NCBI GenBank assembly: GCA_016223135.1
Contig: JACRPQ010000009.1
Coordinates: 62,001-126,000 of the forward strand
From: Chloroflexota bacterium
Lineage (GTDB): Bacteria > Chloroflexota > Anaerolineae > Anaerolineales > Villigracilaceae
DNA: 64,000 nt
Direction: 5' to 3'
Made by a program: the position numbers and the translations under genes. The stretch's first letter is position 1; each line of letters opens with the position of its first letter. Of this stretch, positions 6,815 through 50,166 are shown in pieces. The notes under the pieces were generated by a model. It was given only the letters and a program-made list of their open reading frames with translations, made no database searches and was not told the origin of the DNA.

Positions 6815-6926
6815 CTAGCGACCTGACAGCTTTAAATGGGACGCTGAAAAACGCAGATAAACGCAGAAAAAAACAACTTAAATCAGCGTTTATCTGCGTC
6901 CCAAAACAAAAGTGTCGGGTGGCTAG
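6815..6926. mobile_element. MITE family A, copy 1
   Basis: A 112-bp element with imperfect inverted ends CTAGCGACCTGACA / TGTCGGGTGGCTAG and inner inverted GGGACGC...GCGTCCC. It is in reverse orientation to the other copies. No target duplication is evident at this site. Confidence 0.75.
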
Positions 6927-12747: not shown

Positions 12748-12845
12748 TTCTTTATCGTACACAGAAACCCTAAAGGTCTGCTTTCCCTTGAAAATTTCCA
12801 AAAAGACCTTTAGGGTTTTTCACGAGAGAAATGTACGGTAAAGAG
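12748..12845. mobile_element. MITE family B, copy 1
   Basis: 98 bp, ends TTCTTTATCGTACA / TGTACGGTAAAGAG, with inner inverted AACCCTAAAGGTC. Flanked by the exact duplication AAATCGCA. Confidence 0.85.
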
Positions 12846-12874
12846 AAATCGCAAATCGTAAATCTAAAATCGTA

Positions 12875-12997
12875 CTAGCCACCCGACACTTTTGTTTTGG
12901 GACGCAGATGAACGCTGATTTACGCTGATTTAAGTTGTTTTTTTTCTGCGTTTATCTGCGTTTTTCAGCGTCCCATTTGAAACTGTCAGGTCGCTAG
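12875..12997. mobile_element. MITE family A, copy 2
   Basis: 123 bp, ends CTAGCCACCCGACA / TGTCAGGTCGCTAG (imperfect inverted). Flanked by the exact duplication AAATCGTA. This is the uninterrupted reference copy of the family. Confidence 0.85.
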
Positions 12998-20480: not shown

Positions 20481-21941
20481 TCAGTTGCCCCAGCGGGGCT
20501 GGTAGTCGCAGTAATGGTTGTCGGTCAGTTGCCGCACGTCTGAGCCGTCTGTCCGCATGATGAAGATTTCGCAAGAGTTGGGGTCCTTGCCGGCGACATT
20601 CGTGTAGGCAGTAAAGGCAATCCATTTGCCGTCAGGGGAGAAACTGACGCCTTGGGCGTTGTCTCCGTTGGTGATTTGCGTCAGACCGCTCCCATCCAGA
20701 TTCATCGTGAAGATCTCGTGGGCAAACGGTCCGCCCTGATCGAACGCAAGCAGGTTGAGGGGCGACCAGTCGCTCCGCCCGCGTGTGTCAATGGTGTCGT
20801 TGACCAGCCTTGGCGTGCCGCCGTTAAAATCCATGATGTAGAGTTGGTTTTTCTCACCCTTCCCCAACGCAAAGAGAATCTGGGAGCCGTCCGGCGACCA
20901 CACGCCGTCATGCACATCTTTTCCGGGGACGCTGTAAAACTCACGGGGGCTGCTCCCGTCGCGGTTCATGAGCCAGAGTTGCAGCGTGCTGGCGCGGTAA
21001 TGGAAGATGATGTAACGATTATCCGGCGAGACCTCGGGCGCACCCACGCCCTTTTCAAAATCGGTCAACTGTTTTGTTTTGCCGCTATTCACATCCAGCT
21101 CGTGAATTTCGGTGTAATCGCCATAGTTGACCACATAGACCGCCAACTTGCCATCCGGCGTCAGCGAAGGATTGAAACTGGCAAGCGTGGAGTTCGTCAA
21201 CTGCCGCCAACCGCTTCCGTCGGCGTTGATGATGCAGACCTCGCTCCCCTGAATCTCGCAGGTGAAGATGATTCTGCCCGTCGGCTCGCCTGCCGTGATG
21301 ACGGCTGGGGCTGTGGCTGTATCCGTGATAAGCGGCTCCACCAGCGGCGCTTCGGTTGTGACGGGAGGCGGGGTTGCTGTTTTCCCGCCGTTTTTGTTCC
21401 ACACTGCCAACGCCCCCATGACAATCAACATCCCCGTCAAGCCAATCAAGGCAGGCACGCCAAACCTTTTCAAATCAGCGGGCGGTTTGGTTTTTGTCTG
21501 TGTGAGGACAGGCTGACTCTGCCCTGCAATCTCCTGTTTGATGCCAATATAGTTTTTGAGGGCGTCTGCCAATTCGTCCAGCCCCGCTTCGAAGCGTGTG
21601 CGCAAGTCCACGCGCTGGTGGCTGGCAAGCCGCAGAGGGGTGGAAGTGTGATCGTCTCCCTCGATCAACACGGGGAAGATGCGCTTGCGATGCTGTTCCC
21701 CAAAACTGATTTCACGCCGCACCCATTCCGAATTGTTTGACTCCGGCGAGAGCAGTACGATAATGCCCATCGCTTCGCGGATTGCCCGTTCGATTTCGCG
21801 TTCCCAAGTGGGAGTGCCAGGCGTCAGGTTTTCAATATCCACCCAAATTTCCACGCCGCGCTCACGCAGTTCCTTGATAATCCGCCTTTGTTTGGCAGTG
21901 TCTTCACGGCTGTAACTCATAAAAAAATAAGGGGTGTTCAT
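20481..21941 (-). CDS. TIR domain - membrane helix - TolB-like beta-propeller protein
   Basis: A 486-residue protein. Residues 1-135 are a TIR domain starting NTPYFFMSYSREDTAK. The motif SEWVRRE at 71-77 places a Glu (77) where TIR NAD-cleaving enzymes have their catalytic residue. One membrane helix lies at about 163-185, then a Thr/Pro-rich linker. Residues 225-486 form a beta-propeller of PD40/TolB repeats (SPDGKWIAF, SPDGSQILF, NRDGSS). The layout suggests an outside or periplasmic sensor propeller joined to a cytosolic TIR effector. GAGG precedes the ATG at 21941. Partner genes for a known TIR defence system are not seen. Confidence 0.88.
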   Translation of the reverse strand: MNTPYFFMSYSREDTAKQRRIIKELRERGVEIWVDIENLTPGTPTWEREIERAIREAMGIIVLLSPESNNSEWVRREISFGEQHRKRIFPVLIEGDDHTSTPLRLASHQRVDLRTRFEAGLDELADALKNYIGIKQEIAGQSQPVLTQTKTKPPADLKRFGVPALIGLTGMLIVMGALAVWNKNGGKTATPPPVTTEAPLVEPLITDTATAPAVITAGEPTGRIIFTCEIQGSEVCIINADGSGWRQLTNSTLASFNPSLTPDGKLAVYVVNYGDYTEIHELDVNSGKTKQLTDFEKGVGAPEVSPDNRYIIFHYRASTLQLWLMNRDGSSPREFYSVPGKDVHDGVWSPDGSQILFALGKGEKNQLYIMDFNGGTPRLVNDTIDTRGRSDWSPLNLLAFDQGGPFAHEIFTMNLDGSGLTQITNGDNAQGVSFSPDGKWIAFTAYTNVAGKDPNSCEIFIMRTDGSDVRQLTDNHYCDYQPRWGN

Positions 21942-22054
21942 GCGCAGACCTCTCTCCTCAATCACTCATAAAAACGCATAAGCGGGCTTCCGTGTTCAGA
22001 CGTTGGCGGGCGTGTGTTGATTATAGGTGAAAAGCGGTAATCGGTAAACAAATT

Positions 22055-22301
22055 CTAGCCACCCGACACTTTTGTTGTAGGACGCAGATGAACGCCGACT
22101 TACGCTGATTTAAGTTCTTGACTTACGCAAAACCTGAAATCAATCCACCAAGCTTGACTGGACTGCGCTAATTCGTTCAAAATTCGCGAAGATTGGCGTA
22201 GATTAGCGGACAAGAAAGCCATTTTGCATAAGTCCAGAAGTTGTTTTATCTGCGTTTATCTGCGTTTTTCAGCGTCCCGTTTGAAACTGTCAGGTCGCTA
22301 G
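22055..22301. mobile_element. MITE family A, copy 3, with nested family D element
   Basis: Ends CTAGCCACCCGACA / TGTCAGGTCGCTAG, flanked by the exact duplication AACAAATT (22047-22054 and 22302-22309). It carries a family D insert at 22117-22237. It lies at the left edge of a family B element. Confidence 0.88.
22117..22237. mobile_element. MITE family D, copy 1 (nested)
   Basis: 121 bp, ends CTTGACTTACGCAAAA / TTTTGCATAAGTCCAG (inverted). It is inserted in the middle of a family A element; AAGTT on both sides may be the target duplication. Confidence 0.75.
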
Positions 22302-22307
22302 AACAAA

Positions 22308-22415
22308 TTCTTTACCGTACACAGAAACCCTAAAGGTCTGCTTTCCCTTCGTGAATTTGAGAATTTCCAAAAAGACCTTTAGGGTTTTTTCACGAGAGAA
22401 ATGTACGGTAGAGAG
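22308..22415. mobile_element. MITE family B, copy 2
   Basis: Ends TTCTTTACCGTACA / TGTACGGTAGAGAG. Its own 8-bp duplication TAAACAAA is at 22045-22052 and 22416-22423. The left copy is now separated from it by the later family A insertion. Confidence 0.85.
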
Positions 22416-22420
22416 TAAAC

Positions 22421-22451
22421 AAAAAAAACGACACGGCTGGCGCGTGTCGTT
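22421..22451 (-). terminator. Terminator of the PilZ gene
   Basis: On the minus strand AACGACACG / CGTGTCGTT (9-bp stem) is followed by a run of eight Ts. It is 18 bases after the PilZ stop codon. Confidence 0.88.
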
Positions 22452-22468: not shown

Positions 22469-22864
22469 TTATTCGGAAATGTTGAGCTCGTTAGGGTGGG
22501 GTGGATAATTGGGCGTTTGGCGGCGGAATTCATAGTTTTCCAGGATGGCGCGGATGATTTCTTTCTGCCGTGCAGTGACCGCCTTGAATTCCATGCCCAC
22601 GTTGAAATACTCCGGGCTGAGGTCGCGTTTGCACCATACCACCCGTACTGGCACCGTGATGGTTTCATCGGAGAAATTATCCAGTTCGGGCAGTTGAATT
22701 TGGACGATCAAATCCGTGTTGGGCTTTACTTCGTCGTCGCTGATGACCATGGCGCCCAGTTCGGTCAGGTCGCCCAAGTAGCCAAGCAGGTACCCTCCCT
22801 CCACATTGAATACCTGGGAATACGACATCAAGTCTTTGCGCGGCTGTTTGCGTCGTTCCTGCAT
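22469..22864 (-). CDS. PilZ domain protein (cyclic-di-GMP receptor candidate)
   Basis: A 131-residue single-domain protein. RRKQPRK at residues 4-10 fits the PilZ RxxxR arm, and DLTELGAMV fits the D/NxSxxG motif, with Thr in the Ser position. NVGMEF closes the barrel. GGAGG lies 6 bases before the ATG. These proteins bind cyclic-di-GMP and alter motility or surface polymer output. It is a single-gene unit with its own terminator, divergent from the PIG-L gene. Confidence 0.85.
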   Translation of the reverse strand: MQERRKQPRKDLMSYSQVFNVEGGYLLGYLGDLTELGAMVISDDEVKPNTDLIVQIQLPELDNFSDETITVPVRVVWCKRDLSPEYFNVGMEFKAVTARQKEIIRAILENYEFRRQTPNYPPHPNELNISE

Positions 22865-22930
22865 TTCTGCCTCCAAAACAAGTGTACATGAATATCGGCT
22901 GAAATTCAATTGCGCAATGTTCTTAAAATC

Positions 22931-22959
22931 ATTGCGGCGGCAGGGCGCTGCGGTACAAT
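22931..22959 (+). promoter_or_regulatory. Promoter of the PIG-L deacetylase gene
   Basis: TTGCGG and TACAAT (22954-22959) are spaced 16 bases apart. The -10 box ends 6 bases before the ATG, so the mRNA would be leaderless. Confidence 0.55.
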
Positions 22960-22965
22960 CACTCC

Positions 22966-23709
22966 ATGCGATGGATTTATCTTTCCCCTCATCTCGATGA
23001 CGCCGTCCTTTCGGCAGGCGGGCTGATTCACGACCAGGCAAAGGCGGGCATTCCCGTCGAAATTTGGACGTTCATGTGCGGCGTGCCAGCCGATACCGAG
23101 TTTTCCATGTTTGCCCAAGTGCTTCATTACCAGTGGGGCTTTGCCTCCGCCGAGGAGACGGTGCTTGCCCGCCGCGCGGAGGACCGCCGCGCCGCGCAGA
23201 TTCTCGGCGCACAGGCACAGCACTTCGATTTTCTGGATTGCATCTACCGCCGCGGCAGAGACGGCGCATGGCTCTATACGGACATCTACGCCCCGCCTCA
23301 TGAGGACGACGCGGACCTGCCTGCCCAAATTGCAGCCGCCATCGCCCCCCGCCTCCAACCGGACGATGTGCTGGTCTGCCAACTGGCGGTCGGTTCTCAC
23401 GTGGACCATGTCATCGTGCGCCGCGCGGCGGAATTGCTCGGACGCCCCCTTCTCTACGACGCCGACATTCCCTACCTGCAAAACTACCCTGCCGATCTGG
23501 CTCCGAAAACGGCCGGGATGCAGGAAAAGGTTTATGCGGTCTCAGAAGCAGGCTTGAGGTCGTGGGGGGAGGCGGTTTTGGCGTATCAATCCCAAATTTC
23601 GACGCTCGGAGGCGGGTTTAATATCCCACAATCCATCCATGAATCCCTCCGTTCCTACTGGCAGGAGCGGCAGGGCATTCGTCTCTGGGAGCGGGCTGAG
23701 GGGCTGTAA
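22966..23709 (+). CDS. PIG-L (LmbE) family deacetylase
   Basis: A 247-residue protein. SPHLDDAVLS near the N-terminus and GSHVDHVIV near residue 145 are the zinc-binding motifs (HxDD and HxxH) of the PIG-L/LmbE fold. Members remove acetyl from N-acetylglucosamine-linked small molecules or glycolipids, as in bacillithiol or mycothiol synthesis. The physiological substrate here is unknown. No ribosome-binding site is visible; the -10 box is 6 bases from the ATG. Confidence 0.88.
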   Translation: MRWIYLSPHLDDAVLSAGGLIHDQAKAGIPVEIWTFMCGVPADTEFSMFAQVLHYQWGFASAEETVLARRAEDRRAAQILGAQAQHFDFLDCIYRRGRDGAWLYTDIYAPPHEDDADLPAQIAAAIAPRLQPDDVLVCQLAVGSHVDHVIVRRAAELLGRPLLYDADIPYLQNYPADLAPKTAGMQEKVYAVSEAGLRSWGEAVLAYQSQISTLGGGFNIPQSIHESLRSYWQERQGIRLWERAEGL

Positions 23710-26393: not shown

Positions 26394-26608
26394 CTAGCCA
26401 CCCGACACTTTTGTTTTGGGACGCAGATGAACGCTGACTTACGCAAAACCTGAATTTAATCCACCAAGCTTGACTGGTCTGCGCTAATTCGTTCAAAATT
26501 CGCGAAGATTGGCGTAGATTAGCGGACAAGAAAGCCATTTTGCGTAAGTCCAGAAGTTGTTTTTATCTGCGTTTTTCAGCGTCCCATTTGAAACTGTCAG
26601 GTCGCTAG
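26394..26608. mobile_element. MITE family A, copy 4, with nested family D element
   Basis: Ends CTAGCCACCCGACA / TGTCAGGTCGCTAG, flanked by the exact duplication AAATTTCT (26386-26393 and 26609-26616). It contains a D element at 26434-26553 with the same right junction as the 22-kb copy, but part of the A left arm is missing. It fills most of the gene-free 26327-26685 stretch. Confidence 0.87.
26434..26553. mobile_element. MITE family D, copy 2 (nested)
   Basis: Ends CTGACTTACGCAAAA / TTTTGCGTAAGTCCAG. The centre is nearly identical to 22117-22237. Confidence 0.75.
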
Positions 26609-47934: not shown

Positions 47935-47998
47935 GTTGGTTTTTTTCTGCGTTTATCTGCGTTTTTCAGCGTCCCATTTGAAACTGTCAGGTCGCTAG
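47935..47998. mobile_element. MITE family A, truncated right half
   Basis: It keeps the right arm up to TGTCAGGTCGCTAG but has no left end. The H element occupies the position of the missing half. Confidence 0.7.
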
Positions 47999-48011
47999 AT
48001 GTTTTTTTGAA

Positions 48012-48118
48012 TTCTTTACCGTACACAGAAACCCTAAAGGTCTGCTTTCCCTTCGTGAATTTGAGAATTTCCAAAAAGACCTTTAGAGTTTTTCACGAGA
48101 GAAATGTACGGTAGAGAG
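48012..48118. mobile_element. MITE family B, copy 3
   Basis: 107 bp, ends TTCTTTACCGTACA / TGTACGGTAGAGAG, flanked by the exact duplication TTTTTGAA (48004-48011 and 48119-48126). With H and A it accounts for most of the gene-free 47832-48221 stretch. Confidence 0.87.
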
Positions 48119-50054: not shown

Positions 50055-50166
50055 CTCTCTACCGTACATTTCTTCTCTCGTGAAAAACCCTAAAGGTCTT
50101 TTTGGAAATTCTCAAATTCACGAAGGGAAAGCAGACCTTTAGGGTTTCTGTGTGTACGGTAAAGAA
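50055..50166. mobile_element. MITE family B, copy 4 (reverse orientation)
   Basis: 112 bp, ends CTCTCTACCGTACA / TGTACGGTAAAGAA, flanked by the exact duplication TTTAAAAC (50047-50054 and 50167-50174). With the F element it explains most of the gene-free 49791-50224 stretch; the rest is CACAAAGGTCACGAAGG-type repeat. Confidence 0.88.

What the first reader, a model, noticed from the sequence alone, without database searches (positions are those of the whole stretch)
22045..22423. Three-level nest of small elements whose insertion order can be read
TAAACAAA flanks the pair (22045-22052, 22416-22423) and is the duplication made by the B element. AACAAATT (22047-22054, 22302-22309) overlaps it and was made when the A element later landed at B's left edge. 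The A element itself contains a D element at 22117-22237. Order: B, then A (with or before D).
Basis: seen in the sequence. Interest (0 to 1): 0.6.

Follow-up and report, generated by a model that had tools for sequence, protein, structure and literature searches.

The report
Nested mobile elements in readable order
Three small parasitic DNA elements sit one inside or against another between two genes of a bacterium; comparison with relatives shows the spot was once empty and that element B landed first, followed by element A already carrying element D: a clear case of an ordinary process.

Summary
B (108 bp here) and A (247 bp, carrying the 121-bp D) are non-autonomous elements (MITEs) found in dozens of copies in this genome. 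Apart from the window, 32 B loci have 8-bp flanking duplications with at most 2 mismatches (21 exact); 52 A loci do (38 exact); 27 D loci have 5-bp ones (23 exact). Seven of seven relatives matched on both sides lack the nest and hold one copy of the site. A's target AACAAATT is 6 bp of that site plus the TT with which B begins, and none of the seven has it, so B came first. D sits at one point in A with one duplication in 12 copies at different places: A arrived with D inside. Likely mobilisers: two related IS4-family insertion sequences in other genomes of the family, one with A-type, one with B-type ends, transposases 32-35% identical. Neither was found in the window's genome. A and B abut at a 6-7 bp gap at four loci. 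No relative with B alone was found, so the order rests on sequence logic. A new member of a known kind.

The parts
22045..22052 (.). left copy of B's target duplication TAAACAAA; overlaps the -35-like hexamer of the gene to the left
22416..22423 (.). right copy of B's target duplication TAAACAAA
22053..22054 (+). first copy of B's terminal TT, left of A, now also the end of A's left duplication
   Evidence: TT present at 37 of 37 intact B left ends
22308..22415 (+). B element, TTCTTTACCGTACA ... TGTACGGTAGAGAG, 108 bp; hairpin
22047..22054 (.). left copy of A's target duplication AACAAATT (6 bp host, 2 bp B)
22302..22309 (.). right copy of A's target duplication AACAAATT
22055..22301 (+). A element, CTAGCCACC ... 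GGTCGCTAG, with D inside (247 bp)
22117..22237 (+). D element inside A (121 bp)
22112..22116 (.). left copy of D's 5-bp duplication AAGTT
22238..22242 (.). right copy of D's 5-bp duplication AAGTT
22020..22048 (-). promoter-like TTTACC-17-TATAAT before the gene to the left; similar letters stand in the relatives by eye
   Evidence: consensus match only
22427..22451 (-). terminator-like hairpin with T tail after the PilZ gene; B's target lies in its tail
   Evidence: consensus match only
20481..21965 (-). flanking gene: TIR domain and WD40-like repeats
22469..23041 (-). flanking ORF with a PilZ domain (Pfam run on 22472-22870; true start not determined)

Best explanation
A sequential MITE nest. 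(1) D, a 121-bp element making 5-bp duplications, entered one copy of A, and the A+D unit then multiplied (shown by the shared junction). (2) In this lineage B was inserted into the tail of the terminator-like hairpin of the PilZ gene, duplicating TAAACAAA (insertion shown; that a B-type IS4-family transposase did it is inferred). (3) A+D was then inserted 2 bp inside B's left terminus, duplicating AACAAATT = AACAAA of the host site plus TT of B (shown; that an A-type IS4-family transposase did it is inferred). Both duplications leave the terminator-like hairpin and the -35-like hexamer of the next gene whole, which may be why the nest is tolerated (inferred). No matching transposase was found in this genome, so the elements there are probably immobile unless one re-enters (inferred).
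For: Exact duplications. Single empty site in 7 of 7 relatives matched on both sides: G008, G007, G001, G006, G005, G003, G004. None of the seven has TT after AACAAA, so A's target did not exist before B; TT is B's own start. D in A at TTTAAGTT|D|AAGTT in 12 of 27 D loci with a duplication, with 11 different exact A duplications among the 12. A-type IS: 11 elements with both ends, 1174-1196 bp, duplication 8 of 8 in 7 of them; B-type IS: L251 and L252, 1173 and 1185 bp, 8 of 8 in both (the best of 9 end offsets was taken). IS4 assignment of the G008 protein: NF033591 169.7 bits against a cut-off of 152, PF01609 43.8 against 23; Y(2)R(3)E(6)K in 12 of the 13 ORFs.
Against: No genome with B alone at this site was found, so the intermediate is inferred. 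Divergence does not help and if anything leans the other way: B here has 0 substitutions from the consensus of 40 copies (one extra T, shared with L079), A+D has 7, of which two are shared only with L069 and L088, rows that hold B and not D and so are misaligned there: these two are in effect private. The 8 bp next to B on A's side, AGAACAAA, match TAAACAAA at 6 of 8, a level accepted as a duplication for some other copies. That these IS mobilise the MITEs rests on shared ends and duplication length alone; four of the 13 IS have imperfect or missing duplications (L270 7, L268 5, L260 3 of 8; L276 ends at its contig edge).
Confidence: 0.94

Rival explanations
1. A+D landed first and B was inserted later beside A's right end.
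For: At two other A-B junctions, L067 and L102/L192, both orders give the same letters. A's end CTAG supplies the TA that B's targets tend to carry before the duplication. Here AGAACAAA left of B matches TAAACAAA at 6 of 8.
Against: An exact B duplication exists, but on the far side of A. A's left flank AACAAATT does not exist in any of the seven empty sites, where AACAAA or its variant is never followed by TT.
Confidence: 0.02
2. A and B moved in together as one composite unit.
For: The pair also occurs at C12:303628, 90% identical over bases 11-372 of 379.
Against: There the gap between A and B is 28 bp against 6 here, and A has a different duplication, TGCAATGA. The AACAAA shared by A's right flank and the host site would be a coincidence. 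The listing (40 of 201 candidates scored) shows no second copy of this junction.
Confidence: 0.03
3. The nest is one conserved regulatory block rather than a set of insertions.
For: It lies between a terminator-like and a promoter-like site.
Against: Absent from 7 of 7 relatives matched on both sides; its three pieces occur separately in dozens of places in the genome.
Confidence: 0.01

Closest known systems
Small bacterial repeats inserted into one another: BOX, RUP and SPRITE of Streptococcus pneumoniae (PMC3049150 and PMC10969869, passages seen)
   Same: Small hairpin-forming elements clustered and inserted into one another; the authors suggest a common site preference or local tolerance.
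   Different: Other sequences and host. Here the order of three insertions can be read base by base against empty sites, and the likely IS partners were found only in other genomes of the family.
IS4 family insertion sequences (PMC2266710, passages seen)
   Same: The candidate partners have the YREK signature (12 of 13), DDE spacing 62 and 101-102 (11 of 13 measured) and 8-bp duplications (9 of 13 perfect). The paper gives 8-10 bp for IS4Sa, 8-9 for IS50, 7-8 for ISPepr1.
   Different: I did not place them in a named subgroup; the ends CTAGCCACC and TTCTCTACC were not compared with ISfinder.
IS4321/IS5075 (IS1111 group), which target terminal repeats of Tn21-like transposons (recalled; only a search listing seen)
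   Same: One mobile element landing at the end of another.
   Different: Those are autonomous and site-specific (recalled); A has a loose A+T-rich target and mostly lands elsewhere.

Membership tests
MITE (A, B, D) | short, without an own transposase, with terminal inverted repeats | tested here: met
   D-free A 100-123 bp, A+D 230-258 bp; B 107 bp with its TT and G by consensus; D mostly 121 bp; inverted ends pair in the folds
MITE (A, B, D) | many copies with constant-length target duplications | tested here: met
   52 A and 32 other B loci with 8 bp, 27 D loci with 5 bp, mismatches as stated
MITE (A, B) | ends shared with an autonomous IS | tested here: met
   A-type and B-type IS with both ends
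MITE (D) | ends shared with an autonomous IS | not tested
   no search was made for D's partner; D's ends were only looked for in one locus, L171, and the window
MITE (A, B) | moved by that IS's transposase | not testable with these tools
   needs a bench assay
IS4 family (candidate partners) | Y(2)R(3)E(6)K, and DDE with spacing 60-110 and 100-150 | tested here: met
   YREK in 12 of 13 ORFs (miss: L266, 68% identical to the G008 protein); spacing 62 and 101-102 in the 11 where the script located both D (not in L266, L274)
IS4 family (candidate partners) | target duplications of 7-13 bp | tested here: met
   8 of 8 bases in 9 of 13; 7 of 8 in L270; 5 and 3 of 8 in L268 and L260; L276 cut by its contig end
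IS4 family (candidate partners) | curated family model | tested here: met
   NF033591 over cut-off for the G008 A-type protein only; L239, a distant relative without A or B ends, is below it at 117.6; B-type proteins were not scanned

The most novel reading that the evidence does not exclude
A and B are sister MITE families whose related transposases prefer the same kind of target (8 bp, A+T-rich, tendency to TA-N8-TA), so each insertion leaves at its own edges a fresh preferred target for the other, and nests build themselves. In its strongest form A recognises B's terminus: at four loci (window, L053, L067, L102) A's right end faces a B end at a gap of 6-7 bp (B's left end in the window, its right end in the other three), against about 0.02 such pairs expected over the whole genome, or 0.19-0.38 if only 10 or 5% of it can be hit. 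The 10-bp limit was chosen after seeing the data.
Probability: 0.3. Interest if true: 0.45.

Novelty: new member of a known kind. Interest (0 to 1): 0.3.

Why it matters
It is a clean case in which the history of a short intergenic stretch can be read and checked against relatives, and it ties two MITE families to two related IS4-type transposases that occur in other species of the family but were not found in this host. It also gives a testable hint that sister elements create each other's landing sites.

Tried and rejected
Intrinsic terminators as the target: B, 7 of 33 sites against 16 of 660 control positions in the same flanks (P 4e-5); without the window, whose left flank in that script was A and not the host, 6 of 32 (P 3e-4); A, 5 of 53 rows against 60 of 1060 (P 0.23); D, 0 of 27 against 29 of 540 (P 0.39). 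So at most B shows it, by a simple scan.

Partner IS in the own genome: PF01609 gave one sub-threshold stretch at C2:44450 (20.5 bits, cut-off 23), and its locus holds no A, B or D end at up to 2 mismatches. Single A ends were followed into L172-L177: I saw only MITEs or pieces and recognised no transposase by eye; those ORFs were not searched. The distant IS4-like loci L239 and L248 have no convincing A or B ends.

Other searches: solved structures, no relative (one-sequence search, best E 0.24). Plasmids, no B. Exact 29-base B core in genome contigs: one short metagenome contig (L170); the tool says records of the window's own genome may be left out. Host name and phylum were not determined. 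In the genus B has matches in 4 of 18 genomes, the three others (G001, G007, G014) at 74-85% identity.

Dating by divergence: no power. That alignment of 15 A rows wrongly included three rows without D (L069, L088, L167), so its printed '0 private' for the window is corrected to 2.

Corrections made on recount: the B count (33) includes the window by way of AGAACAAA against TAAACAAA, so it is given as 32 others; its A count (53 rows) holds L060 twice, so it is given as 52 loci.

Papers: PMC10969869, PMC3049150 and PMC2266710 were seen as passages; everything else only as listings. Searches tried Chloroflexi and Anaerolineae, my guess at the phylum from gene content; since the phylum is not established, they say little about what is in print.

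Full report
Observation. Searches of the window's own genome (3.82 Mb, 19 contigs, 98.43% complete) show that each piece is a dispersed repeat. B: 40 matches, 40 of 91 first-look candidates scored. D: 40 matches, 40 of 53 scored. D-free A: 41 matches, 40 of 102 scored. Counting ends with up to 1 mismatch: 126 of A type against 3 for the reversed pattern, 115 of B type against 37 for the reversed pattern, so some of the B ends are chance.

Anatomy. A has 8-bp duplications at 52 loci (53 rows, L060 twice; at most 2 mismatches, 38 exact), B 8-bp at 32 loci besides the window (21 exact), D 5-bp at 27 loci (at most 1 mismatch, 23 exact). B's full ends are TTCTTTACCGTACA and TGTACGGTAGAGAG; 37 of 40 fetched B copies have an intact left end and all 37 carry the TT, the other three being L053, L090 and L098. 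B and a D-free A fold as long hairpins (z -6.7 and -7.5), D weakly (z -2.1).

Empty site. A search of the own genome and 40 relatives with 1579 bases around the nest gave matches in 27 of 41 genomes, many only to a gene or to elements. I examined the seven relatives with matches on both sides; several others matched on one side only and were not examined. All seven lack the nest and carry one copy of the site: GTAAACAAA in G008, G007, G001, G003 and G004, GTAAACAAT in G006, GTAAACGAA in G005. In none does TT follow. G001 carries a different A-like element, ending 24 bp from the site, in the -10 region of the same promoter-like stretch.

Order. B's exact duplication encloses A. If B had come second, its left duplication would be AGAACAAA, 6 of 8 against TAAACAAA, and A's left flank AACAAATT would have to come from a site that no relative shows. 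A's duplication uses B's first two bases, so A arrived after B. D lies in A at one point with one duplication in 12 copies; 11 of the 12 have an exact A duplication, all different, and L059 has a damaged flank. So D was inside A before A+D reached this site. Three further copies (L061-L063) are A+D with a short deletion that joins GACTTACGC of A to GACTTACGC of D.

Age. B here equals the consensus of 40 copies except one extra T. A+D differs from its consensus at 7 places, two of them in effect private. Both insertions look young; the clock cannot order them.

Site. The insertion lies between a terminator-like hairpin (minus strand, 22451-22427) after a PilZ gene and a promoter-like TTTACC-17-TATAAT (22048-22020) before a gene for a protein with a TIR domain and WD40-like repeats. 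The left TAAACAAA copy overlaps the -35-like hexamer, so the duplication leaves it whole. These are consensus matches, not tested functions.

Partners. A pattern for A's ends over the 18 genomes of the genus matched in 11; among the 30 loci returned, one element showed two ends 1.19 kb apart, in G008. It holds an ORF that reaches NF033591 (IS4 family transposase, 169.7 bits, cut-off 152) and PF01609 (43.8, cut-off 23). This protein matched in 5 of 18 genomes of the genus, not in the own genome. One weak match, in G013, is an ORF fragment whose ATG lies 78 bp after the start of an exact B-type end. That fragment, searched over 150 genomes of the family, matched in 32, not in the own genome. Of the 30 loci returned, L251 and L252 have B-type ends on both sides with 8-bp duplications; L253 holds a pair of variant ends CTCTACCGGACA 1.16 kb apart, not followed up; six more (L249, L250, L254-L257) have a B-type end near the match without a full-length partner. 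Among the 21 more distant loci (L258-L278), 12 have A-type ends on both sides (one of them, L271, is the G008 element again, and one, L269, is broken), two have one, and seven have none that I would accept. I measured 13 elements: 11 A-type (1174-1196 bp) and 2 B-type (1173, 1185 bp); 9 of 13 have perfect 8-bp duplications. A-type and B-type transposases are 32-35% identical. L274 has ends CTAGCCACCGTACA that combine A's start with B's CCGTACA. A and B are thus best seen as derivatives of two sister IS4-type groups. Absence from the own genome rests on a 98.43% complete assembly.

Adjacency. Of 130 A ends examined in the fetched loci and the window, seven have a B end facing them within 60 bp, with gaps 6, 6, 7, 7, 13, 28 and 29, and one abuts a truncated B. 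In six of the seven it is A's right end that faces B (not in L112). About 0.02 pairs with a gap up to 10 are expected over the whole genome, 0.19-0.38 if only 10 or 5% of it is available; the limit was set after seeing the data. The order is fixed only in the window; in L067 and L102 both orders yield the same letters, and in L053 B's far end is broken. B also lies inside A in L069, L070, L088, L099 and, in broken form, L174/L194. A shared taste for A+T-rich sites with a TA-N8-TA tendency explains this without special recognition, so I hold the stronger reading at 0.3.

Comparison. Mutual insertion of small bacterial repeats is described for BOX, RUP and SPRITE in pneumococcus (PMC3049150, section 8, passage; PMC10969869, passage). 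IS4 family features are from PMC2266710 (passages). The finding is therefore a new, well-resolved example of a known kind.

Noticed in passing
L105 (G001:C182, about 2.37-2.57 kb): A different A-like element (about 205 bp) sits in the -10 region of the same promoter-like stretch in relative G001, duplicating ATTATAGG: the same short intergenic region was hit in two lineages.
   Followed up: partly
L070, L098, L192, L194, L193: A fourth palindromic repeat (about ACTGATGTTACGCAGTTT ... GCGTAAGGTGAGT) lies in several A copies near the place where D sits in others.
   Followed up: no
L061, L062, L063: A+D copies with a deletion between GACTTACGC of A and GACTTACGC of D; they look like a second-generation subfamily.
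   Followed up: partly
window 6815-6926, 12750-12843, 12875-12997, 26394-26608, 47985-48116, 50057-50164: Further A, A+D and B copies in the same window; at 47985-48116 an A right end faces B at 13 bp, at 12750-12997 B and A lie 29 bp apart.
   Followed up: partly
window 20481-21965 (-): Protein with a TIR domain (TIR_2 87.6 bits, ThsB_TIR 34.1 bits) joined to WD40-like repeats, next to the nest.
   Followed up: no
L274 and L253: IS4-type elements whose ends (CTAGCCACCGTACA; CTCTACCGGACA) mix A-type and B-type end sequences.
   Followed up: no
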